64,000 nt of DNA from Acetobacter musti (lineage in GTDB: Bacteria > Pseudomonadota > Alphaproteobacteria > Acetobacterales > Acetobacteraceae). The stretch spans positions 62,001-126,000 of the forward strand of contig NZ_WOTB01000007.1 of NCBI RefSeq assembly GCF_011516835.1. The letters are read 5' to 3'. Position numbers and translations under genes: made by a program. The notes beneath the pieces are model-generated. The model was not told the origin of the DNA. It searched no databases and worked only from the letters and a program-made list of their open reading frames with translations. Below, piece after piece: positions 47,074 to 64,000 of the stretch (positions within the stretch are counted from its first letter, which is position 1; every line of letters begins with the position of its first letter).

Positions 47074-47643
47074 TCAGGCGCTATCAACAGCAATAAAAAC
47101 GTCGATACCCTCTGCCTTTGTCGCGGATACAACAGATGATACCTGGGCCTGGTCAGTGCCGGCAACGCACTCCACAAACACGGTCCCGGGCGCTGTTCGT
47201 GAGCCGTACCGTGTAGCGCTGCCTCCATACGTATCCCGTCCGAAGCACACACTGTCCGGTGCCCGCCATGGCTCGAATATCGACGCTCCTTCAGTGACCA
47301 GACTCAGCTGATATTCCAGAGCCGCCCGGGTGTTTCGTTTTACCCGAAATTCGCTCTGAATTCTTGCGATATAGGAGGCATCGGTCTCGCCTGTGAGTCT
47401 CGGCACACCTGTGCCGAAATAATCTGCAGCGGCCATATCGACGAAGTTTCCTGTGCTGGTCAGGAGCCTCGATTGCTGCTTTGTATAGAATAACAGCTGA
47501 TAAAACATAGCCCAGGGCCATGCCAGACCGGCAAGCACTCCGTCGAGCACAGGCGTCGCCTGTTCCGAGACTGCCGGAAACCATCCCGCAGGTAATACCG
47601 CTCTGATTCTTGCGGCTATGTCGTCCAGATCGCCTGTAGCCAT
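47074..47643 (-). CDS. phage baseplate protein, Mu gp48 / YmfQ-like
   Basis: Tail-tip protein of 189 aa. DDIAARIRAVLPAGWFPAVS at the start, the Trp-rich helix VLAGLAWPWAMFYQLLFY and ASYIARIQSEFRVKRNTRAA agree with the YmfQ/DUF2313 family of contractile phage tails, which sits between the baseplate wedge and the tail fibre. It is the last prophage gene before the chromosome; in related phages the tail fibre gene would come next, but none is present. 31 bases separate it from the baseplate J gene. Confidence 0.75.
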   Translation of the reverse strand: MATGDLDDIAARIRAVLPAGWFPAVSEQATPVLDGVLAGLAWPWAMFYQLLFYTKQQSRLLTSTGNFVDMAAADYFGTGVPRLTGETDASYIARIQSEFRVKRNTRAALEYQLSLVTEGASIFEPWRAPDSVCFGRDTYGGSATRYGSRTAPGTVFVECVAGTDQAQVSSVVSATKAEGIDVFIAVDSA

Positions 47644-47680
47644 ATTAAAACTCTGCTTCCGAATGACCGGTTTTCATCTT

Positions 47681-48823: not shown

Positions 48824-48824
48824 T

Positions 48825-49181
48825 TTATATTTCCAGCGCCACGGTGTCTCCGGTCGACGCACTCATATAAGTTACCGAGATGCTGCGCTTTCCGGTGCCA
48901 ATATTCTGAACATCGACAACCGGAACGGGGCTCGATGATACTATGGGTTCCAGTGTCATCTGCTGCAGGATAATGGCCTGCAGATCTGCTGGCGTATCTG
49001 TTCCACCCACCCGTGAAGGCAGGCCGGCGCCATAATCAGGAGTAAAAATATAATCGCCTGCATTCGTTGTGAGACGCCGCAGAACACGCTGCATTCCGGC
49101 ATCGTTACCAGTTGCAAGATCCAGTTGTCCGGTGTCGGTAATTACCAGGTCAGACCCACTGATATGAAACAAATCCGCCAT
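48825..49181 (-). CDS. phage GP46-like baseplate wedge protein
   Basis: Protein of 118 aa matching the Mu gp46 type. DAGMQRVLRRLTTNAGDYIFTP and PDYGAGLPSRVGG are the typical gp25/gp46 core, which joins the baseplate to the sheath and tube start. Its stop lies two bases from the baseplate J start, so the two are coupled. Confidence 0.85.
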   Translation of the reverse strand: MADLFHISGSDLVITDTGQLDLATGNDAGMQRVLRRLTTNAGDYIFTPDYGAGLPSRVGGTDTPADLQAIILQQMTLEPIVSSSPVPVVDVQNIGTGKRSISVTYMSASTGDTVALEI

Positions 49182-49232
49182 AATAAATAATTTTAGTTCC
49201 AGTATAAATTATATAAAAATAAGCGCTCTGGT

Positions 49233-50875: not shown

Positions 50876-50930
50876 TAAAATAATCCGGGCAGGCGTTAAT
50901 TTAAAAAACTGTAAAATTTACAAATATTAT

Positions 50931-51122
50931 TTAATGATCAATTCCGCCAGTCTGTGTTGCATCGACCGGAGGCAGAATAATAGTCTGAACAGACGTAATC
51001 CATGTATCTGATAACCCATTAAGGCTCATGATCCGATTTGCCTGTGTAGCGTCACCGAGAAATTTTGCAGCAACATGCCATAAGGATATATTACTCGGAC
51101 CGATTTGTATGGTTTTGGACAA
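50931..51122 (-). CDS. LysM-like tail protein (gpX type)
   Basis: Small protein of 63 aa resembling a single LysM-like module (ISLWHVAAKFLGDATQANRI and the ending WITSVQTIILPP), as in tail protein X, which sits between hub and tube. The start codon is TTG at 51122, supported by GGAGAG nine bases upstream and by conserved position before the hub gene. Confidence 0.75.
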   Translation of the reverse strand: MSKTIQIGPSNISLWHVAAKFLGDATQANRIMSLNGLSDTWITSVQTIILPPVDATQTGGIDH

Positions 51123-51169
51123 TATTTACTCTCCGGGTTTTTTTGGGATAATTTTAATATGTTCCTTTT

Positions 51170-52102
51170 TTAATCGGATATTACACTTCCGTTTGAAAGG
51201 CCAACATTCACGGTTGCTCTGGAAAGATATGCATTAGCCTGAGCAGTCGATGCAACGACACCTGAATGAGCGACACTTGCAGCCAGTGCGCCTGAATCCG
51301 GTACAAGATCCGTTCCTGCATTTGACGCTATCGATGAAAGCTCCGTCCCCGATATTGTCATCACGGATGACACCGCCGATTGACTCGAGGCAAGCTCGGT
51401 GCCGACGGTATTAATCGCCGACTGGCTGCTGACAGACGACAAAGCGCCCGCGTCTGTTGCAACGCCAGATAATGTTGCGGATACGCTCGATAATTGTCCG
51501 CCGGCACCAAACAGGTTTGCCAGAGGTGTTATCTGGCCGGCATATGTCGAGATCGCTTCTGCTGAAGAAGATACGTAGGAGCCTACGGTATCGACAAGTC
51601 CGCTGATTTCACTCACGGCTGAACTGGCATCGTCTCCTATGAGGCCTGCCAGTGCAGACTTCGTGCCATTGGCAGCGCCAGCGACGGCAGGGACAATTTC
51701 ACAAACAATACTATAGGGAATGACAGTGCCATTATCTGTGTATATTGCTTCAAACGCTGTAATAATAACCTGTCGCGACAGACCCGCTCCGGCAAATGTA
51801 TAAATGCCGCCACTCCGGACCATCGTCGCGACCAGATTTGCACGCGACCAGGCATTATAGCCGCGAAATACACCTTTCCATGCCAGTGGCTCTTCATAAT
51901 AGCCTGAAAGGGAGATAGTTTTGCCGCCGCCAGGACGGTGCATAATCGCCGTGTCCTGATATCCTCCCCATTGTAAGGACGAAGGGACTTCCGTATCCAG
52001 AAATTCGACTGTTCCCAGTGTAAACGACTGAGTCCCAATAGCGGAACCGACAGCCCCGATGACGCCCAGTAAGCTGGTCACAGATGCACTCCGGGATAAC
52101 AT
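51170..52102 (-). CDS. phage tail/baseplate protein (gp43 position)
   Basis: Protein of about 310 aa placed between the tape-measure slot and the LysM-like gene, the position of Mu gp43 / DNA-circularisation-type proteins. The N-terminal domain (about 20-150) has QSFTLGTVEFLDTEVPSSLQ, RPGGGKTISLSGYYEEPLAW and GLSRQVIITAFEAIY, a pattern I have seen in tail proteins that bind the hub. The C-terminal half is Ala/Ser-rich and low in complexity. The frame is open to 52150; the ATG at 52102 leaves a 25-base overlap with the gene upstream and is my choice, without a strong ribosome site. Confidence 0.65.
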   Translation of the reverse strand: MLSRSASVTSLLGVIGAVGSAIGTQSFTLGTVEFLDTEVPSSLQWGGYQDTAIMHRPGGGKTISLSGYYEEPLAWKGVFRGYNAWSRANLVATMVRSGGIYTFAGAGLSRQVIITAFEAIYTDNGTVIPYSIVCEIVPAVAGAANGTKSALAGLIGDDASSAVSEISGLVDTVGSYVSSSAEAISTYAGQITPLANLFGAGGQLSSVSATLSGVATDAGALSSVSSQSAINTVGTELASSQSAVSSVMTISGTELSSIASNAGTDLVPDSGALAASVAHSGVVASTAQANAYLSRATVNVGLSNGSVISD

Positions 52103-53145
52103 GGAGTGCTTTGCACCCATGAAAGAGGTGAAGTTGTGGGTGCAGAACAAAGACCGTTGCCGAATTTCTGCGCGACTGCATCCGCGATTTCAGAGATATT
52201 GGAAACGTGCACCGTCCCGGATTGAGTGTCGATTCTCCGGCCAGATGCCAGTTCATTTATTTCTCCAGACTTGGAGTTACCGGTCAGTTGACGCGAGGTC
52301 TGCGCATCTGATTCGCCGCGTTCAGGAAGATCCTGTCGGCGTTCTGTTTGTGAACTCGTTCTGCTGTTTGTAATTTTTCCATATCGGATGAACGATGCCG
52401 ACAACGAGTAGTCTCTCCTGCGGGCGAAATAATCAGGCGTCAAGGTATGGGTGCCTGCTGACATATCTCTGATTTTCCGATTCTGGTCTCGCATAGAAGC
52501 TGGATTAGCGATGTGCCCTGTATTGCGAGATGATAGCGAAGGTCCCGCGAATCCGTTCATTTGTATAATACGTGTCTTTTGCCCGATGGTATTATTTGAC
52601 CGGAAGTAATCCGCATTATCCCGTCTGGCGGAGGAAATGGATCGCTCCAATAAGGGCAACGCCCGATATTGGGTTTCACGGTGGCGATCAGTTATCCCCC
52701 TCTCCATATTTATTACTTTGGCAGCAGAAACGGGATCATTCTGCCGAAGACTAAGTTTATATTTTCCAGGATCTGCTTCAGTAATTCCTGCAAAATTTTT
52801 TGTTTCTCTTGCGGTTTTCTGGTTGGATAATAGCGTAATTATCGGCTGGATTTTTTTTGTGCCGGGAGCCTGGTCTGAGGTTTCGCCGATTCTCTTTCCG
52901 GTCTGGTCAGGTTTGTATAATCCCCGGGATACGAGTGAGGAGTTAATTTCTGTTCTGGCGACTTCTGCAGGACGAGAACTCGACGGGAGGACTGTCTCCC
53001 GTCGTCTGCGCGATCTATGGTCATCTACATAATCATTCAGACTATTAATGTTTCTGTTTACGGCCAGTCGTGCGGTAATCTGACCGTCTGTAGCGCCGTT
53101 CCGTTTGTGCGGCATACGGATAACTTCCCGCTTATCAGAAACCAT
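52078..53145 (-). CDS. protein in the tape-measure slot, probably 5'-truncated by a frameshift
   Basis: A 355-aa open frame in the place where a tape-measure protein is expected. The composition is very polar (many Arg, Ser, Asn, Thr), with no hydrophobic segments or long coiled coil, unlike usual tape measures. The C terminus (GTVHVSNISEIADAVAQKFG) does resemble the ending of tape measures, a beta strand followed by a short amphipathic helix. The first Met has no ribosome site. A T8 tract at 53168-53175, just upstream, separates it from another open frame with a good start (see 53058-53324). If joined, the protein would be about 415 aa, predicting a short tail. Confidence 0.55.
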   Translation of the reverse strand: MVSDKREVIRMPHKRNGATDGQITARLAVNRNINSLNDYVDDHRSRRRRETVLPSSSRPAEVARTEINSSLVSRGLYKPDQTGKRIGETSDQAPGTKKIQPIITLLSNQKTARETKNFAGITEADPGKYKLSLRQNDPVSAAKVINMERGITDRHRETQYRALPLLERSISSARRDNADYFRSNNTIGQKTRIIQMNGFAGPSLSSRNTGHIANPASMRDQNRKIRDMSAGTHTLTPDYFARRRDYSLSASFIRYGKITNSRTSSQTERRQDLPERGESDAQTSRQLTGNSKSGEINELASGRRIDTQSGTVHVSNISEIADAVAQKFGNGLCSAPTTSPLSWVQSTPCYPGVHL

Positions 53146-53324
53146 ATGGGATGAGCGCAGGAAACGTAAAAAAAACCGGAAGCATACGACTCCTTATGAA
53201 GTCGCATGCCATATTTCGTGGCCATGCCGGCATTCCGCACAATACCAGCAGCTCCGATTTTATTGCGAAATAATCCGTGAACTTGGGAATGTTTACGGTG
53301 ATTGTGTAGTATATCCAGGTTCAC
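53058..53324 (-). CDS. likely 5' part of the tape-measure-slot gene (other frame)
   Basis: From GTG at 53322-53324, preceded by AGGAAGAG, an open frame encodes (M)NLDILHNHRKHSQVHGLF and so on, running into the T8 tract at 53168-53175 after about 50 residues and ending at 53058 inside the next frame. A -1 slip on GGT TTT TTT TAC (heptamer T_TTT_TTT) or one extra T would fuse it to the 355-aa frame. Whether this is a true frameshift mutation, programmed slippage or a sequencing error cannot be decided here. Confidence 0.45.
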   Translation of the reverse strand: MNLDILHNHRKHSQVHGLFRNKIGAAGIVRNAGMATKYGMRLHKESYASGFFYVSCAHPIWFLISGKLSVCRTNGTALQTVRLPHDWP

Positions 53325-53449
53325 ACTGCTCTTCCTGAGCAGCGACGAACTGTCAAATCGGGATAAAGTCACACAGCCTCGCAAAATTAATCATCAGGAA
53401 AGTAATATCCTGTTATGGAATCCACTCTTCAACATCGGAAGGTATAAAG

Positions 53450-53946
53450 TCATTCAGTCCAGATGGCTCGTTCCCAGCAATATTCCCCCCCGTCCAGCCG
53501 GCCCGCTACCACGAGGGCCGCAGCACGAATTCGCCAGTCCCATTGTTGTATGACTTCATAAGGGACATTCGCACGCAGGAGCGTCATAATTGTCCAGAGG
53601 GACGGGGAGGATGCTAGTTTTTTATTTCTTCCATCTGTTCCTGACGGTCAATTGTCTGTTTTGACGAAATATAATCTTCTACCGCGTTAATTCCATCTGT
53701 GCCTAAACGGTTTACAAGATCCCTGATTCCGTCCTTGTTGCGAGGGAACGGCATTGGAACACCATCTATCGTACGCACAGAACACCAGGACTGGGCTGCA
53801 TTCAGATAGACTTCGTTTGCTGAGCCATCATTCCCGCAGGCAAGAAGAAAATCCAGAATTTCACCGGGATTCATTTCCCGATACTCGATTTTCTTTCCGT
53901 TTCCGGACGTGATTTCAACGTTATCAGTGACAGAATTACCAGACAT
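53450..53946 (-). CDS. tail assembly chaperone, -1 frameshift product (E+E' type)
   Basis: Predicted fusion made when ribosomes slip by -1 at 53617-53623. Residues 1-110 come from the chaperone frame, then 55 more from the -1 frame (53617-53453), stopping at TGA 53452-53450, for about 165 aa. The extension contains SLWTIMTLLRANVPYEVIQQ and WDWRIRAAALVVAGRLDGGE, protein-like sequence of the kind seen at the end of tail assembly chaperones. In P2, lambda and many phages such products guide tail tube assembly around the tape measure. Confidence 0.75.
53614..53946 (-). CDS. tail assembly chaperone (short form, gpE / Mu gp41-like)
   Basis: Unshifted product of 110 aa located between the tube and tape-measure slot. 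It has a beta-rich start (VEITSGNGKKIEYREMNPGE), an alpha-helical core with acidic residues, and ends EQMEEIKN. Position, size and the frameshift signal at its end identify it as the short tail chaperone. The start overlaps the tube stop by one base (TAATG). Confidence 0.8.
   Translation of the reverse strand: MSGNSVTDNVEITSGNGKKIEYREMNPGEILDFLLACGNDGSANEVYLNAAQSWCSVRTIDGVPMPFPRNKDGIRDLVNRLGTDGINAVEDYISSKQTIDRQEQMEEIKN
53617..53623 (-). promoter_or_regulatory. programmed -1 frameshift site A_AAA_AAC
   Basis: The chaperone frame ends ATA AAA AAC TAG, so the heptamer A_AAA_AAC sits in the exact zero-frame phase for tandem slippage and the stop codon follows at once. The -1 frame is open for 55 codons. 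A_AAA_AAC is among the best-known slippery heptamers in phage chaperone genes. Confidence 0.8.
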
Positions 53947-54371
53947 TATATAGCCCTGCGCTGACTGGCGAAAAATTGTACGGTCTGAGTGACGATATCT
54001 TCCGCATTAAATTTCCCTGCATTGGAAAATGATAATGTCAGTCCCGAGTATTCATACTTTGATGTTGATCCGTCGGTTTCCTGAATATAGCAATACAGCA
54101 CTCCGGAGGAAATTGTATTGCTGTTCCAGAACGCGAGTTCATCCGCATTGAACAGATCGTCGAGAGCATAATTTCCCCGGTCGATCGTAAAGCTTCCCCG
54201 CCATCCAGCCGGAGTATTAAATTCAATGGGAGGCTTGTTTAAAGGATTCGTTCGCTGAACTTTAATTTCCTGACGAACCTGAAAATCGACGACATCTTCG
54301 AGATCGATTCTCGTTCCATTCCATATCAAAATGATAGAGCCCTGACGACCAATGGTGTACAATGAAGACAT
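53946..54371 (-). CDS. phage tail tube protein
   Basis: Tail tube protein of 141 aa. The N-terminal half (GSIILIWNGTRIDLEDVVDF) and the C-terminal strand pattern (KYEYSGLTLSFSNAGKF, then VTQTVQFFASQRRAI) resemble Mu gpM / P2-type tubes. It lies between sheath and chaperone with one-base overlaps on both sides, so translation is coupled along the chain. Confidence 0.85.
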   Translation of the reverse strand: MSSLYTIGRQGSIILIWNGTRIDLEDVVDFQVRQEIKVQRTNPLNKPPIEFNTPAGWRGSFTIDRGNYALDDLFNADELAFWNSNTISSGVLYCYIQETDGSTSKYEYSGLTLSFSNAGKFNAEDIVTQTVQFFASQRRAI

Positions 54372-55933
54372 TAGCTATTCGTCACCGTAACGTCGGCGCC
54401 CCCGTTTATATTTACAATAAACATTCTGTTTACGCCCAGGTATGTCACTGAGACATCAGCCTGCAGATAACCCAGCGCAATTCTTGATTGAGGATTATTT
54501 GTCGTTGAACACACGACTGAGTAGGCAGTGCTTCCCGACGCTGTCCCAATGATGCCCTGTGATTGCAAATCAGATAGAAATCCTGTTAATGTCGCCTCGA
54601 CATTAGAAAATAACGTCGGTGAGATGGCGAGACCAATATAGATTCCCATGCCATTTGAAATTGTTTCAGCAATAAAATTCGTTACCCGGGTATACTCGTC
54701 ACCGTCTATTTCCGGATTGCTGGAGACATTAAATCCGCCTCTCACGCACCAGTAGGCGCCTCCGGGAGCCGGATTGCAGATAACATCGATGCCGTTTTCG
54801 AACAAAGATGTCAGTTCAGCGGATGAATAAGTCAGTGTCTGACCGCTGGAGGATAACCCGGCTTTCTGACTGCCAACAATTCCATATAACTGTTTATTGA
54901 GGCTTGGTAATTCCGGTGATAAAACTGAAAGTCGTCCGGCGACAAATCCTTGCGGCGATACAAGTCGTGTGACAGAGTTTTCTGAATCGTACCAGTATAG
55001 CCAGTCTCCCAACATTACTTTCAAAGCATAGCTATCAACGCCCGCAGCGGCGCGTCGGGAAACTGCGTCCGAAATCAGCTCTCCGGAGGGACCTGCTGCA
55101 ATCATATAGACTCCTTCACCAAGACCGAAAGAAATCTGAGTCGACCAGGTCGAAGAGTCAGTTACTCCGGCCAGGACGCCTATGCTGCAGCTCTGTCCGC
55201 GCAGCGCGTACATGCCGGATCTGGATGTTCCGTCCGAGCCAACGAGCTGCTCAGCCGATACAGAAGTATTACCGTCTGCGCCGTTCATGAGGGTCTGATT
55301 TGTAATGGCAGACGGACTTACACTGGAATTTGTTCCGGCGGTCGCTACGACCAGAGCGCTCGGGCCGCGTAATGATGACTGGCCGCTGTTGACTGCGGTC
55401 ACAAGATCAGACCAGAACGAGGCATTCCCTTCCGATACAGAAAGATTATCAAATGACTCCGGAAGAGCATTTGGCATCTGCAATACCAGTTTCCATGTGC
55501 CGGGTGCCGATCCTGTAGTCAGTTCGACGCTTATTGTATTTCCAGCGCTGCCGGTATATTTCGCAGCCAGCAGGACGGGGTAAGTTCCCGCAACTGAGTC
55601 ATAAAGCATTGCATAGGATGCAGCGACATCTGTCCCATCGGTAACACGCACGCCCGTAAATGAACTTGCGCCCTGCACGATGGCAGTAGAAACAACAGTA
55701 GCAAGATCATATGCGGAGGTCTGCATAGGGCCGAATGCAGCGATGCGTTCCTGGGAAGTTCCGAATACAACAGGTGTATTTACCGGTCCCCAGCTTGCGG
55801 TGCCCACGACGCCAATCACATTTGTCGACGCTCCGGAAAGCGAGGTACTGCCGGAGGTCTGAATCTGAACATACAGATCCGGGACAGTCAGAGCTGCCGT
55901 GTTAATAGATCCGCTTTGAGAAATTATACCCAT
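54371..55933 (-). CDS. phage tail sheath protein
   Basis: Contractile sheath subunit of 520 aa, showing that this is a myovirus-type phage. The N terminus has VPDLYVQIQTSG and NVIGVVGTASWGPVNTPVVF, the standard sheath entry, and the C-terminal domain has TRVTNFIAETISNGMGIYIG with IVNINGGADVTV as the last strand. Ser/Thr/Gly-rich in between. Together with the tube it would form the contractile tail. Confidence 0.92.
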   Translation of the reverse strand: MGIISQSGSINTAALTVPDLYVQIQTSGSTSLSGASTNVIGVVGTASWGPVNTPVVFGTSQERIAAFGPMQTSAYDLATVVSTAIVQGASSFTGVRVTDGTDVAASYAMLYDSVAGTYPVLLAAKYTGSAGNTISVELTTGSAPGTWKLVLQMPNALPESFDNLSVSEGNASFWSDLVTAVNSGQSSLRGPSALVVATAGTNSSVSPSAITNQTLMNGADGNTSVSAEQLVGSDGTSRSGMYALRGQSCSIGVLAGVTDSSTWSTQISFGLGEGVYMIAAGPSGELISDAVSRRAAAGVDSYALKVMLGDWLYWYDSENSVTRLVSPQGFVAGRLSVLSPELPSLNKQLYGIVGSQKAGLSSSGQTLTYSSAELTSLFENGIDVICNPAPGGAYWCVRGGFNVSSNPEIDGDEYTRVTNFIAETISNGMGIYIGLAISPTLFSNVEATLTGFLSDLQSQGIIGTASGSTAYSVVCSTTNNPQSRIALGYLQADVSVTYLGVNRMFIVNINGGADVTVTNS

Positions 55934-55935
55934 TT

Positions 55936-56109
55936 CTATTCGCCCTTCTGCTCCACAGTGCGAGCTTTAGTGGCATTCGGCACGTTCACCGTAATGACAA
56001 ATTTCGCGTAATATGAGCTTATAATGCTTGCTATAGTAACAGTATTTTCTATCAGATCTCCTTTTTTATAATTCGCAAAATCTGAAATCACCAATAACGC
56101 TTTTTGCAT
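55936..56109 (-). CDS. small phage protein, 57 aa (DUF2635-like position)
   Basis: Short frame from ATG at 56107-56109 to TAG at 55936-55938, translated MQKALLVISDFANYKKGDLI and so on to VEQKGE. It is too short for usual gene cut-offs but fills the gap between the hydrolase-fusion gene and the sheath gene and has GAGAG seven bases upstream. In Mu-like phages a small protein of this size often precedes the sheath. Beta-rich, with a likely N-terminal strand; no known function. Confidence 0.6.
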   Translation of the reverse strand: MQKALLVISDFANYKKGDLIENTVTIASIISSYYAKFVITVNVPNATKARTVEQKGE

Positions 56110-56117
56110 CGATCTCT

Positions 56118-58061
56118 CTATGTAATAAAAGGCAGATCTGGAAACACGCTTTCCCGTGTTGCATCAGTTATAGCTGACCCTACCGCCAGAATACGGTCGG
56201 TTACGGGACCGTCTGCCGAGTATGTCGGCGCAAGCCAGCCGCCTTCAGCGAATTCATTCCAGGCGTAAATCAGTCCCACTGACGCCGGAGATGCGGAAGA
56301 GCTCTGTAAAAATCGAGCCATGTTCATAATATGATTTGCGATGTCAGGCGCTGATGCATCTTCGTAGTAATTATTGTCGGTCAGGGCTGAGCTCAGCGGA
56401 TAGAACTCCTGAGGTCGCTCTACAAGGGGTCTTTGATCCCACCCCGTCATAGCAGTCGGAATCATTGGGAAACCCGTTGCGGCCCTGTCGGCCCAGTCAC
56501 TTTCCGCCGCATGAACCAGAGCAGAATATGGCTGCGGGGCTCCTGACAGGCGTGGCGTGCAGTAAGCGCCTGCAGCATCCGCCCCTGCGGCCTGCGCCGC
56601 AGAAGTATTATTATAGTCGGCAAGCGCAGCGCCCGAGAGATAGACAATGTAAGGAGTCACGCCAATGGCGTCCGACACCGAGTCCCGGACAAATGTAATC
56701 GCCGTATTCAGGCCTCCGGGAAGCTCTGCCAGTTGTTCCGAGCTTGCATCAAGTACAAAATACAAGGGTCTTTCACCCATGACGGTCATATATTCAGAAC
56801 GGGCCATGAGAGCTATATCTCTCTTCAGGATATCTGAGTAACCGTCAGAACTGTTTTGATCTGACCAGTTCGATGACTGGCCGATCATGCAAAATTGAAG
56901 TCCATTCTTTTCGCTGCTCGACAAATATAGCGAAAGCGCGAGACTCAGAGTATTGTCTTTATCATATGAGTCAAAGGCCCAGAATGATAATCCACATGAA
57001 ACAGCCAGAGCGATTTCAGCATCAATCGAAGCCTGTGTCGCGGTGGGCCATGATACTGATCCGGTACTGTTTACAGCAGAATTGCCGGGCAGGCGGTAGT
57101 ACCATTCCGGGTCGCTCAGGGCATCTGCGCATTGCTGGTCGATTGTATTATTCATATCATACCAGGCATCGAATCTGATAGCTCCCAGTGGCGGCAAGGC
57201 AGCGGGAGTTTCTGTACCGGCGACGCCAAATGCCCAGGCCGAATTCACGATTCCGACTGGCCAGAGCACGGGAGCAGACTGTGCAGATTCGGTCCAGGCG
57301 ATCTCTGTTTTCCAGACGAGATCCAGACGATACAGGTTTGCGTTAAGGTTTGTGTCCACCAGCTCTCTGCTGGAAAATCTGAGATAACCTAATTCGTTTT
57401 TATCGATATCAGGCAGTTTCTGTTCCAGAAGAGCCGATGTTACAGCCTGTTCTATCGTGTCGCGCATTTCTATTGATGGAGCAAATATCGAAATGCTGAA
57501 TCCCTGTTCTGTTCGGGATAACTCACGGTATATTTCAACAGTCTCAGCCGCTTTTCCGTATATGGTATCAGACGACGCAACAGTTAATGTCGTGTCTGAA
57601 CACGACAATGCGGCCTCACCTACGTTATTCACTTTTGCGGCGATTGTCTGAGCGATTAGAGTTGCTGAATCACCAGTTTTGACCGCGGCAGGATAAGCGA
57701 CGTCATTAATAACAACACCAGCTACCCCATTGCGCGCTGCTGTGCCCTGAAACGTAACGGCGTTACCTGTATTTGCAGTCAGCACTGTTAGGCCAAAAGG
57801 AGTATCATTTCCCTTTTCGAACCAGTTGCGCCGGTAACGTGTTTTATTGGTTGCACTGTCGGGCTTTTGATTTACGGTAATCCACCCTGTCCCAGGTGCT
57901 GACATAACGTCGTTACCCAGTTCGGTTTCCTGTGGCCAGCCCCGGCAGATTTTTACATCGAATCCTAAAACTGAGACCAGTGTGCCGTTTGTCTGCGGAG
58001 GATATATATAATTGGCTATAGCCTTCGCCAGCGCAGCTTCTACCTCACAAACCTGTGCCAT
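56118..58061 (-). CDS. phage neck/terminator-like protein fused to GH99/WbsX-like glycoside hydrolase
   Basis: Fusion protein of 647 aa. Residues about 1-260 look like a phage neck or tail-terminator protein (ALAKAIANYIYPPQTNGTLV, VKICRGWPQETELGND, TRYRRNWFEKGNDTPF). Residues about 290-640 have the pattern of the GH99/WbsX-like TIM barrel: AIRFDAWYDMNN, a helix of the type IDAEIALAVSCGLSFWAFDS, FCMIGQSSNWSD, RPLYFVLDAS and the late motif LIYAWNEFAEGGWLAPT, where WNE-x-x-EG is typical. It would cleave or bind a glycan, perhaps host exopolysaccharide. The start overlaps the upstream stop by one base. The catalytic assignment rests on motif resemblance only. Confidence 0.7.
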   Translation of the reverse strand: MAQVCEVEAALAKAIANYIYPPQTNGTLVSVLGFDVKICRGWPQETELGNDVMSAPGTGWITVNQKPDSATNKTRYRRNWFEKGNDTPFGLTVLTANTGNAVTFQGTAARNGVAGVVINDVAYPAAVKTGDSATLIAQTIAAKVNNVGEAALSCSDTTLTVASSDTIYGKAAETVEIYRELSRTEQGFSISIFAPSIEMRDTIEQAVTSALLEQKLPDIDKNELGYLRFSSRELVDTNLNANLYRLDLVWKTEIAWTESAQSAPVLWPVGIVNSAWAFGVAGTETPAALPPLGAIRFDAWYDMNNTIDQQCADALSDPEWYYRLPGNSAVNSTGSVSWPTATQASIDAEIALAVSCGLSFWAFDSYDKDNTLSLALSLYLSSSEKNGLQFCMIGQSSNWSDQNSSDGYSDILKRDIALMARSEYMTVMGERPLYFVLDASSEQLAELPGGLNTAITFVRDSVSDAIGVTPYIVYLSGAALADYNNTSAAQAAGADAAGAYCTPRLSGAPQPYSALVHAAESDWADRAATGFPMIPTAMTGWDQRPLVERPQEFYPLSSALTDNNYYEDASAPDIANHIMNMARFLQSSSASPASVGLIYAWNEFAEGGWLAPTYSADGPVTDRILAVGSAITDATRESVFPDLPFIT

Positions 58062-58741
58062 TATGTCTGATCCGCCAGTACAGCTATGCGTGTTCCAAAC
58101 GTCGTCATTTCGACACTATAGATATGGTATGCTACCCCGTGAGATGTTTTGACGCGCAATCCCTGATGCAAAGTGACGTTCGGAATTGCGGGCATAAGGA
58201 TTTCAAAACTACCGGATGGAATATCTGTTCCCAGCCGGGAGGCGGGACGATTACCGGTGCCGCTTTTCAGCATTGATACCGGCCAGTTTTCAGCGATTAT
58301 TCTGTCCGACTTCCATGTCGGTCCTTCCGGAGGGCGAAGTCCCACAGATTTATCGTCCGATGAAACATCGCTTTCGAATATTGATATAACTTCGTTGGTT
58401 AAAACGACGAGGATCGGCCTGGTCGGTTCAATCCGTGCTATAAAATAGGTATCCTGAGGGTAAGATAATAATTCCGTATCTGACTGGACCACAAGATAAT
58501 CGCCGCACTTTGATGCTGACGTATTTATTGCGGCGAAAGCGAATTTGTGTCCCCAGATCAATGGCGACGTACCGGAAAGTGATGCTGCAGAGTCAAACAG
58601 GCAGAGAGTGTTGAAAAGATATCCGTTCTCATACGGACCAGTAGAATCCGTTGCTCTGTATAATTTCACGTTTACGCCGAGAATTGACGCCACCTTACTG
58701 AGACCAGCAGCAATTTTATTCTGCAGACAGGTTAGCCTCAT
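58061..58741 (-). CDS. phage neck protein, unknown family
   Basis: Protein of 226 aa from the ATG at 58741, whose first base is the last of the upstream stop codon (TGATG). It starts with a helix (LQNKIAAGLSKVASILGVNV) and continues with a beta-rich body (YLVVQSDTELLSYPQDTYFI; FEILMPAIPNVTLHQGLRV). The position between capsid and tail genes suggests a head-tail joining or structural role. Family not recognised. Confidence 0.65.
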   Translation of the reverse strand: MRLTCLQNKIAAGLSKVASILGVNVKLYRATDSTGPYENGYLFNTLCLFDSAASLSGTSPLIWGHKFAFAAINTSASKCGDYLVVQSDTELLSYPQDTYFIARIEPTRPILVVLTNEVISIFESDVSSDDKSVGLRPPEGPTWKSDRIIAENWPVSMLKSGTGNRPASRLGTDIPSGSFEILMPAIPNVTLHQGLRVKTSHGVAYHIYSVEMTTFGTRIAVLADQT

Positions 58742-59145
58742 CACACGACAAACCGAATTGTATTCGGACAATATCCTGGCCCTGGCTCGACTCCGAGAAA
58801 CCGGACCAGTTCAAGTCTTTGCTGATAAAACAGATGAATTCTTTCTTTTACTTCTGTTTTGTTATGTGTCCATACAGATGCTTTGTCAGTATCGATATTT
58901 TGTGCCGCCTGTGACGGACCTGCCTCAAGACAGGACAGTGTTCCCAGCATCGATCTGAGAACACCGATTTCAGGCTCAGATAAATTATTCAATTTATATT
59001 CGAAGTCACCATATTTATCAAAATAGGGCCATGTATTTCTTATGCTTGTGTCAGATCCCAACGCAGGATACCAGCAATATCGCCGCACGTTTACCTTTTC
59101 GGCATCCGACAGACTAATCGACAGCAATCCATTAGTCATGATCAA
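58741..59145 (-). CDS. phage head-tail connector-type protein
   Basis: Protein of 134 aa directly after the capsid gene. Predicted mostly helical, with a C-terminal helix (VKERIHLFYQQRLELVRFLG) and ending in GYCPNTIRFVV. Size and place agree with a connector/adaptor of the gp36 or gp6 type, but the sequence itself is not diagnostic. A second ATG lies two codons into the frame. Confidence 0.55.
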   Translation of the reverse strand: MIMTNGLLSISLSDAEKVNVRRYCWYPALGSDTSIRNTWPYFDKYGDFEYKLNNLSEPEIGVLRSMLGTLSCLEAGPSQAAQNIDTDKASVWTHNKTEVKERIHLFYQQRLELVRFLGVEPGPGYCPNTIRFVV

Positions 59146-59203
59146 TATCCGTATTATAATAACAGAGAATGTGACCCGTCATTAACGGGTCACTTGTCTT
59201 CTT

Positions 59204-60571
59204 TCAGAGACTTTCTATGACTACACCACGTTTCAGATAACTATTCGTGGAGGTCGGAATAATCGACGGATTGACTGTCGCATCTGTTGGCAGGGCAAAT
59301 CCACCGATCCAGTACCAGGACTGGGCGATAATCTGTTTCAGACGATCCAGAGGCTCTCGTGTAATCATCATGATTCCGTCGACATTTTCTACGAGAGCTC
59401 TGTCGCTGTCCGGAATATCGAGAGTACCGTTGTAGTCTCCTTCAATGAGGGCGCCCTGTCCGCATACAATAGCACGATGAATTACGCCTGCGCCCAGCGA
59501 GGCCTGCAACGGGGCCTCTGTGGTTGGTATAAACCGAACACCAAGAAGTTCAACGACAGAGCCAGCCCGGTATGTTTCGCTTCCATACGCACCGCGATAG
59601 AGATATTTAAAATCGCCATCACGGAACAGCCCGAGCATCTGCTGATCATCAAGATAACAATGATATGCGCCGTCGATTGTCGGAACGTTATTCATCCGGA
59701 GCGCAGCCACAGCGGCGAGTACTGTCTGAATACCGAGGGTATCTCCGGCGACGTACGTGCTGGAGCCATAGTTCCCCACCGGAGCGACAAGCCCTGCTGT
59801 CGTAAGCCTGTTGTTGGGGCGCAGAACAAGCGGTGCCGTGGAGGCTACGACCGGATTGCCTGCGGTAGCATCCGCAACGGACACCGATGTCGAAAAAGTT
59901 AATTTGCCGGACTGGCCAAGAGGGGCTGTGGATGTATTGACGGCGTCTGCGCTCACACCCACCAGCGTGTAGGCATTGCTGCCGACAGTTACAGTCATCC
60001 CGGAAGACTGATCTACCGAGACGACCTGACCTGCCGAACTGAGTACACGTTCGAAACCACGAATGTCGTCTACGGAGACCTGAGTTCCCGAAGTGCTCAG
60101 TGTTACTGCGATACGGGTGTTGCCCCCCATATAACCGCCTACGCCTGAGGAACCCCCGCCGAACAGTGTGTTGCGGGCGATACGGTCCAGTGACTGAAGG
60201 GCCTGGATGCCGTTCGTATTTGCATTAGCCAGAAACTGATCTGCGATTCCTACGCCTTCGCTGACCACATTGAGATCGATTGTATCCCCATACTGGTTGA
60301 TGGAGAGGGTATACTGCTCGACGGACCACGTAGACGGGGTCAGACCATTATCAAAGTTCGTATTCTGCGTGGGGTTCATAGGCGTTGTGACAGGCGCCTT
60401 AAGACCTTTACGTGTTTTCGTAATGCTTTCGCCAATCCGATTCGGAAAAATCTCACGGTCGGCAATCGCTCTGAATGCGATGCGCGACTGAAGAGCAGCT
60501 CCAAACTCACGAGCGAGGTAGCCCTCCTGAATAATTGGCTGTAGCTGTGCAGGAAAATTATCAATAGCCAC
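59204..60571 (-). CDS. phage major capsid protein
   Basis: Capsid subunit of 455 aa. The helix LQPIIQEGYLAREFGAALQS, the entry FPNRIGESITKTRKGL and the ending with PLDRLKQIIAQSWYWIGGFA agree with HK97-fold capsid proteins of the P22/N4gp56-like sort. A Thr/Ser/Gly/Val-rich insertion spans about 150-270. The start is GTG at 60569-60571, with AAAGGA eight bases upstream. It follows the scaffold-like gene. Confidence 0.85.
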   Translation of the reverse strand: MAIDNFPAQLQPIIQEGYLAREFGAALQSRIAFRAIADREIFPNRIGESITKTRKGLKAPVTTPMNPTQNTNFDNGLTPSTWSVEQYTLSINQYGDTIDLNVVSEGVGIADQFLANANTNGIQALQSLDRIARNTLFGGGSSGVGGYMGGNTRIAVTLSTSGTQVSVDDIRGFERVLSSAGQVVSVDQSSGMTVTVGSNAYTLVGVSADAVNTSTAPLGQSGKLTFSTSVSVADATAGNPVVASTAPLVLRPNNRLTTAGLVAPVGNYGSSTYVAGDTLGIQTVLAAVAALRMNNVPTIDGAYHCYLDDQQMLGLFRDGDFKYLYRGAYGSETYRAGSVVELLGVRFIPTTEAPLQASLGAGVIHRAIVCGQGALIEGDYNGTLDIPDSDRALVENVDGIMMITREPLDRLKQIIAQSWYWIGGFALPTDATVNPSIIPTSTNSYLKRGVVIESL

Positions 60572-60583
60572 GTTTAAAATCCT

Positions 60584-61150
60584 TTAATTATAACGTCGTG
60601 AGTAGGAGGGCGCAATTTTCTTAAGAGAAGCTTTGTAGTCCGACTCTGTCATTTCGCGTACTGATGTCGGACCAGCCGCTTTTACCCTCGGTGCGGCGAC
60701 GAATTTCGCAGTTCCTGTTGATTTTCCTTCTTTGTCGCGAGATGGAAACAGGAATGGTTTACGTGTCTTCAGCTCCGAAAAGGCTTCATCAACACCGATA
60801 ACATTTCCGTCCGAATCTACTGAAACGCCTGACGTATCGAGCAATGGGAGACAATCCATGTCGACGAGACCGGATGTGACAGCCGCCGCTTTAATGGCCG
60901 CGCTTCGTCTTACCTCGGCTATTTCTGCTGCCCGTATCTCGTTTGCGGATGACACTTCAACACGAGCGCGCTCGAGTTCTGCTTCCATTGCCGCATTCCG
61001 CGCTCGTGCTTCAGCAAGATCAGCCTGTGTCTGCGCGAGCTGATTCGAAAACGCATCAGCGACACTGTCCGCAGCCGATCGATTCAACGGATTAGCCTCT
61101 CCCGAACCTCCTTCTTCTGGGGAACAGGTAATTCTTTCAAATAATTTCAT
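60584..61150 (-). CDS. probable capsid scaffolding protein
   Basis: Protein of 188 aa with a central coiled coil rich in Ala, Glu and Arg (about 35-90, AEARARNAAMEAELERARVE), flanked by polar segments and a basic C terminus (DYKASLKKIAPSYSRRYN). Place between portal and capsid, size and a basic tail are those of scaffolding proteins (GP20-like). No protease domain is visible. Confidence 0.75.
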   Translation of the reverse strand: MKLFERITCSPEEGGSGEANPLNRSAADSVADAFSNQLAQTQADLAEARARNAAMEAELERARVEVSSANEIRAAEIAEVRRSAAIKAAAVTSGLVDMDCLPLLDTSGVSVDSDGNVIGVDEAFSELKTRKPFLFPSRDKEGKSTGTAKFVAAPRVKAAGPTSVREMTESDYKASLKKIAPSYSRRYN

Positions 61151-62656
61151 TTATACCTCAGTTGGATCGCGGTCCTGAACCTGCCCGTCCAATGCTCTCA
61201 GACGCTCATCATGCTTTTTAATGTCATTAAGTATTTTGTTTTTCTCTTCACCAACATGCTGAACATGCGTTGCAGGGCGCATCATCCTGACTGCCGAGTC
61301 CATCGATACCGCATTTGCAGAACGAGCGGCCTGAACCGCATTAGCCATAGTCTGCATGTCTCCAAATGTTGGTTCAAACCACGGAGGCCATACCAGGGAA
61401 ATATTTCCCGACTTAACAGGTCCATGAACGCGTCCGGCTATGCGGAGATCCGGAACGGCCTGGCTGATTCGACATATAAGATTCAAAATTGAAATGAGGC
61501 CGAATTCGCCATAAGATCTGCGTAGTCGTCCTGTCAGCCAGGTCAGTCCCAGACACATCAATTCCATAGCGCGGCCTGACTGGGCAGCCGTAAGCCGGTC
61601 TCCCTGAGCTCTGTTTCCGTGCATAGCTTCAAGTGCGAGCGACCGTAATGCTTCCCACATATTGAGAGATGCCGTTGCTCCGGTACCGTTTATTTCCAGA
61701 AGCTTTGCATCGCCACCCTGAGGGAGTGAGATGGCATGAGAGGCGTCCTTCGGCATCTGCTGCGTCATGCCGCCGGGCAACTGATATTCGTCGGTCGAAA
61801 GTACCATTGTCGGGTCGGCTGAATACCGCAGTCCCCGAACGGTTTGTGACAGCAGATAATCTGCATCGATCATCGCATCGATACCGGCCGAAAATGTACA
61901 CTTTCCATCAGGGGAGCCCGGATCTGTTCCCGGAAGGTTTTTTATCCAGACAATCGGGACAACACCCAGTCCATGAATGACTGATCTCGTGTTGTCTCTT
62001 ATAAGACCGTCATCGGTATGTGGAGCACTTCCCAGCTTTATCGGCTGATACCAGACAGTCTCATTTTCTGTAAAATCTCTCGTGAACCAGTAATTTCCGG
62101 GTGGAAACTCACCAAGACCGGCCCGCATAAGACCATCGGCGTCCACGACGTACTGCTCCCGTACTTTCACCAGTCTTCTGGCGTCAAACAGTGAGAATAC
62201 AGGCTCAAGAAAGCAGGTTCTTTTTATTTCGATAATGAGTTCGTCATCAATAGCCTGAACAAGGACTGCGACAGATCCTACGGAACCCATGACGGCTGCC
62301 TGTTCCATTACTGACGCCAGATGGAGATCCGCAATGATATTTCTGATCAGATGTTCGCGGTCGTTATCATCTGCGCCGTCATCTGTCTTTACGACCACGG
62401 CTGGCCAGTGCGACTGACTGAAAAGAAGCGAAGCTGAATCGTCAACCACTGTACTGCAAAGGTGAGTTCGTATTGACGGTCGTCGTCTGTTTACCGGAAT
62501 ATATGTGCCATCACTGTCGCAACTTTTAAAAAAAGGATGTGGTATATGATTGTACATTGTACCATCAAGAACCTTTTCTAAGGCAAGAAGGTTTTTTGTC
62601 CGGCACGAGTAAGTCGATGGAAACATCATCGTCTTTTTGAGCTCTACCCAGTCCAT
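61151..62656 (-). CDS. phage portal protein
   Basis: Portal subunit of 501 aa of the SPP1 gp6-like type. Family features are the entry DDSASLLFSQSHWPAVVV, the FFLEPVFSLFDARR-like region (CFLEPVFSLFDARRLVKVRE, 20 residues), the stem/clip region and the long C-terminal helix ending in a charged tail. It forms the DNA entry ring and binds the terminase encoded just before it. One base separates it from the scaffold gene. Confidence 0.85.
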   Translation of the reverse strand: MDWVELKKTMMFPSTYSCRTKNLLALEKVLDGTMYNHIPHPFFKSCDSDGTYIPVNRRRPSIRTHLCSTVVDDSASLLFSQSHWPAVVVKTDDGADDNDREHLIRNIIADLHLASVMEQAAVMGSVGSVAVLVQAIDDELIIEIKRTCFLEPVFSLFDARRLVKVREQYVVDADGLMRAGLGEFPPGNYWFTRDFTENETVWYQPIKLGSAPHTDDGLIRDNTRSVIHGLGVVPIVWIKNLPGTDPGSPDGKCTFSAGIDAMIDADYLLSQTVRGLRYSADPTMVLSTDEYQLPGGMTQQMPKDASHAISLPQGGDAKLLEINGTGATASLNMWEALRSLALEAMHGNRAQGDRLTAAQSGRAMELMCLGLTWLTGRLRRSYGEFGLISILNLICRISQAVPDLRIAGRVHGPVKSGNISLVWPPWFEPTFGDMQTMANAVQAARSANAVSMDSAVRMMRPATHVQHVGEEKNKILNDIKKHDERLRALDGQVQDRDPTEV

Positions 62657-62705
62657 AATTATGGATATCCTCTTCTGGTGATTTGTACTAAATTCTGTGA
62701 ATTGA

Positions 62706-64000
62706 TTATCGCTCGAGTATTCTGGAAAGAGGCGGTGACGTGTCCGGCTTTAAAAATCTGAAAAAGAAATAGTATCCTGTTGCATCGACAAGATGATCAA
62801 ACCCACCATTTTTGTCAGGCTCTGAAGTTCCGCTGCGATAAATATATCGTTCATAACTTTCAATGCTTTTTCGGCAAACCGGAGATACGTATGCACGTCT
62901 CTCTCCTGCGGAATTTTCAAACATTGCATTTGTAATGTTTAATCGTTCTCTTACTTTCGGGGCCTTTTTCATTACGTTTATATTGAAGCCAAATGATTTC
63001 AGAATGGATATATCAGTTCGGCCACATGATGATGTTCTGTTCGCCTGTCCGGATGGATCGGGGTATATTGTTATATGATCGCAATCAGCAGACTCTTCTC
63101 CGGAAAATAAAATCTTCTTTTTACCATATCTTCGTAAAATTTCCTGGGCAATTTCATCAGTGTTTGAGGTTGGTAAAACGATTTCATCTATCTGGAATGA
63201 TGTTATATTCCCATTTTCGTCTGTTTTTTCCTGCCAGACAGTTGCCGATATGGGATTAACGTTAAAGTCCAGACCGATATGGACTGCCTGCTCAGCGTTG
63301 TAACTCATATTTCTTATTGATTTTTCACGGGAAAAAGCATAGAGGCAACGTCCGGAAAATGTTTCGAACGATGCTTCATATTCTTGCCGAAACTGACGAA
63401 TATCAAGACATTGTCTTGCATTCTCAATTTCTGCCGGGGGAACGTTCCCGCCATCCAGTGTTGTGTAAGAGCATGACCACCACCCTGGCTCTTTTCCTGG
63501 TCCGTCCTGCCCCTTCAGATATAAGTCGTGGAAATGGTCCCGTCCTTTTGGTGTTCCAATAAAAAGCGCGTGGCCCTGTGCAGTTGAAAGCATAGGCCTC
63601 AGAATCTCATTCCATACTTCAGGTTTTACGTCAGCCCATTCATCCCCTAAAAAGAAGAATAATCCTGATCCACGTAATGCATCGTAATTTTCAAGTCCTA
63701 CTACCCGAACGATATGTCCGTAAGGTCTGATTGTCAGAGCCAGATCAGATTCACGCGGGGCCGATTTCAGCCAGTGCCGTGGTACAGTACTTTTAAGACG
63801 AGGCCAGAATATTTTTTTTGCCTGCTTATATGTGGGCGCTCCATACCATATTTCATTTTCAGGACTTATATTTTCTCGAACAGCAAATTTTATTGCCCTC
63901 CGCATTTCCTCTGCAGCTTCAAATGTTTTACCAAACCGCCGGCCACATACAGCTACTCTGAAGCGCGAATCCGATTTCCATCCCGCCTGATAAATATCCA
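62706..64000 (-). CDS. phage terminase large subunit (5' end cut by window)
   Basis: ATPase/nuclease that packages DNA into the prohead. The frame continues through the first Met at 63905 to the window edge, and the upstream part holds the Walker A motif VCGRRFGKTFEAAEE near 63960-63915, so the gene starts beyond 64000. Walker B is LFFFLGDEWADV. The coupling motif follows (ALFIGTPKGRDHF). The RNase H-like nuclease has IGLDFNVNP, an acidic ESADCDH/DPSG segment and FDHLVDATGYYF. No small terminase is visible in the window. Confidence 0.92.
   Translation of the reverse strand, partial: DIYQAGWKSDSRFRVAVCGRRFGKTFEAAEEMRRAIKFAVRENISPENEIWYGAPTYKQAKKIFWPRLKSTVPRHWLKSAPRESDLALTIRPYGHIVRVVGLENYDALRGSGLFFFLGDEWADVKPEVWNEILRPMLSTAQGHALFIGTPKGRDHFHDLYLKGQDGPGKEPGWWSCSYTTLDGGNVPPAEIENARQCLDIRQFRQEYEASFETFSGRCLYAFSREKSIRNMSYNAEQAVHIGLDFNVNPISATVWQEKTDENGNITSFQIDEIVLPTSNTDEIAQEILRRYGKKKILFSGEESADCDHITIYPDPSGQANRTSSCGRTDISILKSFGFNINVMKKAPKVRERLNITNAMFENSAGERRAYVSPVCRKSIESYERYIYRSGTSEPDKNGGFDHLVDATGYYFFFRFLKPDTSPPLSRILER

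What the first reader, a model, noticed from the sequence alone, without database searches (positions are those of the whole stretch)
56118..58061. Glycoside hydrolase-like domain fused to a phage neck/terminator-type protein
The C-terminal half carries a GH99/WbsX-like pattern (LIYAWNEFAEGGWLAPT and several upstream TIM-barrel segments) attached to an N-terminal domain located between capsid and sheath genes. Phage carbohydrate-active domains usually sit on tail fibres or spikes at the other end. In this prophage no tail fibre is visible, so receptor glycan processing may have moved to the neck or to whiskers at the head-tail joint. The hosts make exopolysaccharides that could be targets.
Basis: partly seen in the sequence, partly recalled or inferred. 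Interest (0 to 1): 0.8.

Follow-up and report, generated by a model that had tools for sequence, protein, structure and literature searches.

The report
Sugar-cutting-type enzyme on phage neck
A phage-like particle encoded in an acetic-acid bacterium carries, fused to the ring protein that joins head and tail, a barrel of the type that cuts or grips sugar chains, and the same barrel sits on several other kinds of head-tail joint protein in related phages.

Summary
Confirmed and extended. The ORF is on the MINUS strand (56118-58061, 647 aa). Residues 1-266 are a neck (tail-terminator-type) protein of family phrog_13532; the model matches solved phage necks (812, E217) with good E-values but modest superposition. 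Residues 290-639 fold as a (beta/alpha)8 barrel (pLDDT 91) nearest to GH99 enzymes (VIA Z 24.0, 21.8), with the GH99 pair N-E-x-x-E (E603, E606). By sequence it is nearest WbsX (PF14307), below Pfam's cut-off. The barrel is optional: 130 of 299 genomes of the host's family carry the neck protein, 8 of the 299 with the barrel fused; 97 of 99 unfused homologues examined end within 28 residues. The same barrel clade (100/98) also sits on three other joint-protein families (Mu gp37-like, lambda FII-like, phrog_6774). Best reading: six outward glycan-active modules at the neck, probably hydrolases; 4 of 26 neck-borne copies lack the first catalytic Glu, so binding may suffice in some. 'No tail fibre' holds only for the cluster: a tail-fibre gene lies on another contig. 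The element is compact (~18 kb), has no listed integrase nearby and is under purifying selection, so it resembles a gene transfer agent as much as a prophage.

The parts
57264..58061 (-). N-terminal neck / tail-terminator-type domain, residues 1-266 (phrog_13532)
   Evidence: phrog_13532 3.8e-37; full-length model hits neck chains 8qkh_G 3.1e-7, 8fvh_M 4.7e-5, 9cc7_F 5.2e-5, 9b42_G 5.2e-5 (that these rows fall on the N-domain is inferred, the table gives no ranges)
57582..57770 (-). Insertion of about 63 residues (98-160) inside the neck domain, resembling a stretch of tail sheath proteins
   Evidence: phrog_165 tail sheath 1.4e-6 over residues 98-160
57195..57263 (-). Short C-terminal segment plus flexible linker, residues 267-289; its first part corresponds to the C-terminus of unfused homologues
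   Evidence: 97 of 99 unfused homologues end 13-28 aa after the domain; pLDDT below 50 at 268-273 and 275-286
56145..57194 (-). GH99/WbsX-like (beta/alpha)8 barrel, residues 290-639
   Evidence: AF2 pLDDT 91.2, pTM 0.91; PDB GH99 matches; hhalign to WbsX Prob 98.0, E 3e-13
56241..56261 (-). Catalytic-type motif WNEFAEG (W601-G607); E603 and E606 align with the two Glu of N-E-W-H-E in BtGH99
   Evidence: HMMER alignment to 4acz/4acy; second Glu in 54 of 54, first Glu in 50 of 54 distinct homologues
58061..58771 (-). 236-aa gene directly upstream, connector by position (phrog_14605, unknown function)
58741..59145 (-). 134-aa gene, head-tail adaptor by position (phrog_14539, unknown function)
59204..60571 (-). 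Major capsid protein
   Evidence: phrog_1357 2.1e-51
55936..56109 (-). 57-aa ORF between this gene and the sheath gene; small ORFs lie at the same place in some relatives (82 aa in L040, 68 aa in G169, 67 aa in phiKX2)
   Evidence: read
54371..55933 (-). Tail sheath
   Evidence: phrog_23 3.7e-46
53946..54371 (-). Tail tube by position and conservation (phrog_12993, unknown function)
47074..47643 (-). Last baseplate-type gene of the cluster; the convergent host gene on the plus strand ends 143 bp away (PQQ-dehydrogenase by eye only)
   Evidence: phrog_26379 3.7e-32, phrog_7378 baseplate 9.6e-6

Best explanation
The protein is the tail-terminator/neck ring protein of a small contractile phage-like particle with a GH99/WbsX-type barrel appended after its short C-terminal segment. 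Shown by computation: the sequence, the predicted folds, the conserved catalytic pair, the gene position, the optional nature of the barrel, and its recurrence on four differently classified joint-protein families. Inferred: by analogy with E217 gp29, a hexamer whose C-terminal extensions reach outward to the first sheath proteins and swing about 25 degrees on contraction, six barrels stand out around the collar. There they act on polysaccharide of the host or of sibling cells (EPS or O-antigen). Most likely they are endo-glycosidases using E603/E606, which loosen the matrix during approach or free progeny from EPS; in some relatives they may serve only as glycan-binding modules.
For: Neck family, position and fold; outward C-terminal extension of gp29: PMC10329688 passages. 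Barrel and GH99 match. Catalytic pair; in MANEA E404/E407 are catalytic and E404Q is called inactivating (PMC11025385 passages). Barrel placed after the short C-terminus. Purifying selection on the barrel, dN/dS 0.085 and 0.17 in two species pairs. Barrel 57-62% identical to five relatives whose neck domain is only 27-32% identical. Barrels on Mu gp37-like, FII-like and phrog_6774 joint proteins in one clade with the window's, 100/98. Three of nine non-neck relatives in the 299-genome sample have a giant WbsX-type ORF nearby.
Against: No activity or virion localisation was measured. Four neck-borne copies lack the first Glu (Q, N, D, D), which argues against catalysis in those. The GH99 H-I-E-P motif is not conserved, so the substrate cannot be read off. 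TM-scores of the neck matches are below 0.5. The relative placement of the two domains is not predicted (pTM 0.60, linker pLDDT <50). The comparable neck collar of phage TP901-1 was reported non-essential for infection (PMC6669499 passage). The element may be a defective prophage.
Confidence: 0.55

Rival explanations
1. Non-catalytic adhesin: the barrel has become a lectin that only grips host polysaccharide, like the carbohydrate-binding modules on lactococcal neck passage structures or the RcGTA head spikes.
For: Four of 26 neck-borne copies have replaced the first catalytic Glu (Q in L081, N in L087, D in L242 and L044) against 0 of 28 others; chance of all four falling in the neck group 0.047, computed after the pattern was seen. 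E404Q is called inactivating in MANEA. A neck CBM of phage PhiA.16 bound host cells, though only a proportion of them (PMC6669499 passages); RcGTA head spike and tail fibre bind capsule (PMC10218006 abstract).
Against: Both Glu are kept in 22 of 26 neck-borne copies including the window, and the second Glu in 54 of 54. A pure lectin would not need both.
Confidence: 0.27
2. Structural collar decoration or stabiliser with no glycan function; the enzyme fold is a relic.
For: Most homologues of the neck protein that were examined lack it, so it is dispensable for assembly there.
Against: Catalytic-site residues are among the most conserved positions; the barrel is better conserved than the neck domain; a mere stabiliser would not be expected to recur on four joint-protein families.
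Confidence: 0.1
3. The element is a decaying prophage and the fusion has no present role.
For: No PF00589 integrase within 20 kb of the element among the listed matches; no lysis or replication gene recognised beside it in the window's genome, most ORFs there being read by eye only; the fibre gene is on another contig.
Against: All 17 segments compared have dN/dS between 0 and 0.36 in the pairs L025-L026 and L024-L026 (the window-L023 pair was mostly saturated in dS); the cluster lies beside the same transporter gene in three Acetobacter genomes (by eye).
Confidence: 0.08

Closest known systems
GH99 endo-alpha-mannosidases/mannanases (human MANEA, BtGH99, BxGH99, OpGH99A 5ngw)
   Same: (beta/alpha)8 barrel over about 290-300 residues (Z 24.0 to 5ngw; 21.8 to MANEA 6zdf), N-E-x-x-E pair after the last strand
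   Different: 10-13% identity (VIA rows); the H-I-E-P motif of BtGH99 is replaced; tethered to a neck protein; substrate unknown
WbsX family PF14307 (annotated glycosyltransferase)
   Same: Nearest by sequence: hhalign Prob 98.0, E 3e-13; shared A-W-N-E-x-x-E-G end and FC[ML]...NW stretch by eye; 18 of 27 members of A5 hit PF14307 at E<=0.1
   Different: The window protein is below Pfam's cut-off (17.9 against 25.1 bits); it is encoded among phage structural genes, not in a giant glycan-locus-type protein
Neck / tail-terminator proteins: E217 gp29 gateway, phage 812, PhiTE and Pa193 necks
   Same: Foldseek matches of the full model, E 3.1e-7 to 5.2e-5 (8fvh_M has 182 residues, as gp29); gene between connectors and sheath; gp29 hexameric
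   Different: 63-residue sheath-like insertion and a 350-residue barrel at the C-terminus; TM-scores below 0.5
Neck passage structures of lactococcal 936 and TP901-1 phages
   Same: Carbohydrate-directed domains at the neck, optional (about two thirds of 113 phages have an NPS); groups D-G give HHpred hits named pectin, alginate and carbohydrate esterase (PMC6669499 passages)
   Different: Siphophages of Gram-positive hosts; a separate collar protein, not a fusion to the tail terminator; other folds
RcGTA head spikes and TspA tailspike
   Same: Phage-derived alphaproteobacterial particle with capsule-binding parts on the head; biofilm-degrading enzyme (abstracts)
   Different: Other proteins, attached to head or tail; relation to the barrel not tested
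Temperate phages phiKX1/phiKX2 of Komagataeibacter xylinus
   Same: Homologue of the neck domain (33% to that of L085) in the same gene order, in a study of mitomycin-inducible myovirus-type particles
   Different: No barrel: the phiKX2 gene is 882 bp; PHAST called phiKX1 incomplete and phiKX2 questionable

Membership tests
GH99 | (beta/alpha)8 barrel of the GH99 type | tested here: met
GH99 | Catalytic pair E-W-[HG]-E (E404/E407 in MANEA) | tested here: met
   N-E603-F-A-E606 aligns with N-E-W-H-E of BtGH99; both Glu met, the two residues between differ
GH99 | H-[IL]-E-P-Y motif | tested here: not met
   FHIEPF of BtGH99 aligns with family consensus Fclllql; the window has FCMIGQ
GH99 | Endo-alpha-mannosidase/mannanase activity | not testable with these tools
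   no assay
WbsX PF14307 | Score over the Pfam gathering cut-off | tested here: not met
   17.9 bits against 25.1; the profile-profile relation is strong
GH71 | Fold similarity to solved GH71 members | tested here: inconclusive
   AnGH71C and agn1 Z 18.3-19.0, lower than GH99
Contractile-phage neck / tail terminator | Fold of the terminator ring protein | tested here: met
   812, E217, PhiTE and Pa193 neck chains, Foldseek probability 1.00, E 3.1e-7 to 5.2e-5, but TMt only 0.34-0.47 and rmsd 8.9-12.7; neck-terminator and tail-completion names in the viral library
Contractile-phage neck / tail terminator | Gene between head-tail connectors and sheath | tested here: met
   window and the relatives whose locus covers it
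Contractile-phage neck / tail terminator | Hexamer present in virions | not testable with these tools
   needs particles
Gene transfer agent (whole element) | Compact structural cluster without integrase, at conserved chromosomal sites, under purifying selection | tested here: inconclusive
   points that way, but only PF00589 was sought, the weakest matches were not listed, and flanks were compared by eye
Gene transfer agent (whole element) | Packages and transfers random host DNA | not testable with these tools
   no particle data

The most novel reading that the evidence does not exclude
The head-tail joint is a recurrent mounting point for one mobile glycan-active module: a single clade of GH99/WbsX-like barrels has moved between at least four joint-protein families (phrog_13532 ring, Mu gp37-like, lambda FII-like, phrog_6774 tail terminator) in contractile phages, FII-type phages and GTA-like elements of Acetobacteraceae. 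It gives these particles a neck enzyme, or an enzyme turned lectin, six copies strong, that works on the producer family's own exopolysaccharide.
Probability: 0.5. Interest if true: 0.78.

Novelty: new variant of a known kind. Interest (0 to 1): 0.64.

Why it matters
Phage depolymerases are normally looked for on tail fibres and spikes. A glycosidase-fold module that recurs at the head-tail joint on several kinds of joint protein points to a second, little-studied place for glycan handling on virions. It also offers a testable link between EPS-forming acetic-acid bacteria and a widespread, possibly domesticated, contractile particle: the neck protein is present in 130 of 299 sampled genomes of the family, and natural fused and unfused versions provide ready comparison.

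Tried and rejected
Chance ORF: rejected. Anti-phage function: PADLOC found nothing. Hydrolase against transferase: no test here separates them beyond the GH99 pair. Known phage with the fusion: none in 50,697 phage records with the full protein or with the barrels of L043 and L091; only the unfused neck homologue in phiKX1/phiKX2.

'The barrel replaces long tail fibres': of eight unfused elements with a visible far end, G051, G062 and G217 carry long fibre-type ORFs (one of them checked: 917 aa, phrog_16641 tail fibre 5.5e-30; the others by eye), the other five shorter ones or none that I recognised; eight fused ones show a 427-473-aa fibre-type ORF after the last baseplate gene (two of this type checked). 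Too weak to claim, and the window's genome has a fibre gene elsewhere.

Sequence homology between the four joint-protein families: hhalign of A2 against single sequences of the other three gave Prob <1; inconclusive, and a shared terminator fold is possible for some. PHROGs gave no hit for the L043 and L089 fusions and only a weak 'head closure Hc1' for L091; their FII assignment rests on Pfam and, for L043, NCBIfam. N-domain patterns for a collection scan failed with A2; a narrower alignment A3 worked. PDB sequence search with A1 gave nothing at E<=1; A5 gave OpGH99A 0.0039 and BtGH99 0.13. A near-copy of the stand-alone L094 barrel, L097, has no sheath gene that I identified beside it.

Literature: searches for GH99 with WbsX (0 papers), tail terminator/glycoside hydrolase/phage neck/collar (4 papers), GTA with Acetobacteraceae (6 papers) and GH99/endo-mannosidase/E333/phage (12 of 180 listed) showed no title or abstract start describing this fusion. 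Only open-licence PMC papers are held, so this is weak evidence of absence.

Full report
OBSERVATION. The reported ORF is real: 56118-58061, 647 aa, on the minus strand. The plus-strand reading is closed by stops. In gene order (minus strand) it follows terL, portal, scaffold, major capsid protein and two genes in connector position (134 and 236 aa), and precedes a 57-aa ORF, the sheath, and the tube-position gene. TerL, portal and scaffold are named from position and conservation, with a weak Pfam hit for terL (PF17289, 21.0 bits against 22.6).

N-DOMAIN. Residues 1-274 match phrog_13532 (function unknown, 3.8e-37); residues 98-160 also match a tail sheath family (phrog_165, 1.4e-6). With the full-length AlphaFold model (pLDDT 88.8, pTM 0.60, 45 rows), Foldseek against the PDB lists neck chains of phage 812 (8qkh_G 3.1e-7; 8q01_M 2.8e-6), E217 (8fvh_M 4.7e-5), PhiTE (9cc7_F 5.2e-5) and Pa193 (9b42_G 5.2e-5) among and below the GH99 and GH71 rows; TM-scores by target length are only 0.34-0.47. 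That these rows fall on the N-domain is inferred, since the table gives no ranges and neck proteins have no barrel. Against viral models it lists neck-terminator, tail-completion and sheath-stabiliser names. In E217 the gateway gp29 resembles the lambda tail terminator, is hexameric, and its C-terminal extensions reach outward to six sheath proteins and swing about 25 degrees on contraction (PMC10329688, passages).

C-DOMAIN. Residues 285-647, predicted alone from 27 rows, give pLDDT 91.2 and pTM 0.91 with eight beta strands alternating with helices. Foldseek: the first 36 rows are all GH99 (MANEA, BtGH99, BxGH99; best 2.3e-10), followed by GH71 and GH164. VIA-align: 5ngw Z 24.0, 301 aligned, 3.7 A; MANEA 6zdf Z 21.8; GH71 18.3-19.0; GH164 15.5-15.8; other TIM barrels 13.8-14.4 (5ngw is named OpGH99A). 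By profile, A5 hits OpGH99A (E 0.0039) and BtGH99 (E 0.13). In the latter, a sub-threshold second stretch (-1.3 bits) sets YAWNefaEGG against TSFNEWHEGT at 325-334, so E603 and E606 correspond to residues 329 and 332 of that chain (that these are BtGH99's catalytic residues is recalled). The matching residues of MANEA, E404 and E407, are catalytic and E404Q is called inactivating (PMC11025385, passages); PDB titles list inactive E404Q variants and E333Q and E336Q variants. The GH99 motif H-[IL]-E-P is not kept. By sequence the nearest named family is WbsX PF14307: 15.8-17.9 bits, below the cut-off of 25.1, but A5 against four WbsX domains gives Prob 98.0, E 3e-13 over 275 columns. PF14307 is hit by 18 of 27 members of A5 at E<=0.1.

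OPTIONAL MODULE. Of 299 sampled genomes of the host's family, 130 carry phrog_13532 and 20 carry the barrel. Of the 20, 8 are fused to phrog_13532, 3 to other joint proteins (G190, G020, G191) and 9 are in other settings, 3 of them (G104, G130, G177) with a giant WbsX-type ORF in the fetched stretch. In a sample of 395 genomes of the order, 72 match A5 at E<=0.001, 26 of them above 190 bits; the matching genomes listed are in the same family, and many weak ones are partial matches to giant frames. Among 90 phrog_13532 proteins from viral contigs (80 loci, the best of 416 from the A3 scan, plus 10 of the 22 loci of the A1 scan; three fused ones are duplicates), 75 end 13-21 residues after the domain and 15 carry 367-386 residues, always this barrel. 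In a larger, overlapping set of 99 unfused proteins 97 end 13-28 residues after the domain and two 76-78; in fused ones a short segment in the same place is followed by a linker and the barrel. The remaining matches outside the 30 loci read were not examined for their C-termini. On a tree of 119 neck domains (L088 left out as too short) the fused label needs 2 changes: one gain and one loss, or two gains.

SAME MODULE ON OTHER JOINT PROTEINS. L040 (frame open at the contig start): N-part PF08873 Mu gp37 (9.3e-5, 23.0 bits against a cut-off of 25) and phrog_490 (5.1e-17, labelled portal), followed by a phrog_208 ORF, sheath (phrog_165 8.5e-123) and tube. L043, L089/L095 and L091: PF05354 head-tail attachment (36.9, 43.1 and 40.1 bits, cut-off 26), with a capsid-protease gene upstream in L043 and L089 and a portal gene in L089; PHROGs did not name L043 or L089. 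L044: phrog_6774 (8.3e-19) and weakly the tail terminator phrog_4204 (2.8e-4), followed by sheath (phrog_165 7.3e-143) and tube (PF10618 1.2e-33). L094: a stand-alone barrel directly before a sheath gene (phrog_23 7.2e-96), in another part of the tree. On the tree of 45 barrels (proteins over 850 aa, short matches and some near-copies were dropped) all barrels fused to joint proteins form one clade of 25 (100/98) without cellular ones. Inside it L159 (phrog_13532) pairs with L044 (98/93), and L088 (phrog_13532) falls with the Mu gp37-like and FII-like ones (100/98 for the five). So the barrel has moved between joint proteins, though some rows have long branches. Lack of detectable homology among the N-domains rests on single sequences and does not exclude a shared terminator fold.

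SELECTION AND CATALYTIC STATE. Barrel dN/dS is 0.17 (L025-L026) and 0.085 (L024-L026); all 17 segments compared in those pairs lie between 0 and 0.36; for the window against L023 dS was mostly saturated. To five more distant relatives the barrel keeps 57-62% identity while the neck domain keeps 27-32%. In 54 distinct barrels (frames over 850 aa and truncated ones left out) the second Glu is always present and the first in 50; the four exceptions (Q L081, N L087, D L242, D L044) are all neck-borne (4 of 26 against 0 of 28; 0.047 by a count made after the pattern was seen). The window keeps both.

CONTEXT. The cluster spans about 18 kb (window 47074 to about 1.3 kb beyond the window's end, G000:C7:109,074-127,267, if three small ORFs upstream of terL belong to it) at 44-52% G+C in 2-kb steps against 54-65% before position 48,000. 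In 18 genomes no PF00589 integrase lies within 20 kb of the element on its contig among the listed matches (nearest in the window's genome about 32 kb away; the weakest matches were not listed). Unfused G025, G022 and G250 (genus codes g26, g23, g54) share chromosomal flanking genes by eye; fused G086, G181, G251 and G132 all have an UppP-like gene nearby (name by eye); three Acetobacter genomes have the same transporter-like gene beside the cluster (by eye). A tail-fibre gene (472 aa, phrog_863/phrog_4209) lies on another contig in the window's genome and away from the cluster in four more Acetobacter genomes; it directly follows the last baseplate gene in L027's genome, as do its homologues in seven other fused elements. 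G301 and G302 also hold a second, more distant baseplate-fibre gene pair. This resembles the scattered layout of gene transfer agents; that comparison is from memory apart from the RcGTA abstracts. Mitomycin-inducible myovirus-type particles are known in acetic-acid bacteria, and two of the phages sequenced in that study, phiKX1 (predicted incomplete) and phiKX2 (questionable), hold the unfused neck homologue (PMC8566455 passages).

MECHANISM AND RIVALS. The barrel follows the segment that in E217 docks outward on the sheath, so six copies at the collar is the simplest geometry (inference). The enzyme pair, the WbsX/GH99 relation and the setting of some cellular relatives point to polysaccharide. 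Whether it cuts or only binds is open; I favour cutting for the window. Precedents for carbohydrate-directed domains at phage necks exist (lactococcal NPS, PMC6669499 passages; the TP901-1 collar was reported non-essential for infection), so the idea is not new in kind. The GH99-type fold, the fusion to tail terminators and the spread across joint proteins appear new within the searches named in Tried and rejected.

Noticed in passing
window 47074-64000 and L181 (G000:C7 to about 127,267): Compact contractile element with terL, portal and capsid, no listed integrase nearby, related versions with shared flanks in several genera, under purifying selection: a candidate contractile-tail gene transfer agent of Acetobacteraceae.
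   Followed up: partly
L209 7933-9351 (G000:C18): Solitary 472-aa tail-fibre gene with an HTH_17 ORF beside it, among metabolic-type genes; likewise detached from the cluster in G299, G300, G301 and G302.
   Followed up: partly
window 52078-53145: The ORF at the tape-measure position (355 aa) is polar, poorly conserved, and matches only one family of unknown function weakly; the tail length cannot be inferred.
   Followed up: no
window 57582-57770: A sheath-like insertion inside the neck domain, suggesting exchange of a small domain between sheath and terminator.
   Followed up: no
L037, L038, L039, L047: Small 147-148-aa proteins beginning M[YF][VI]P[PS][YF]D lie near giant WbsX-type proteins and/or the barrel gene.
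   Followed up: no
L041 3276-5429, L042 8116-10149: Barrel at the N-terminus followed by RHS-repeat matches in 677-717-aa proteins.
   Followed up: no
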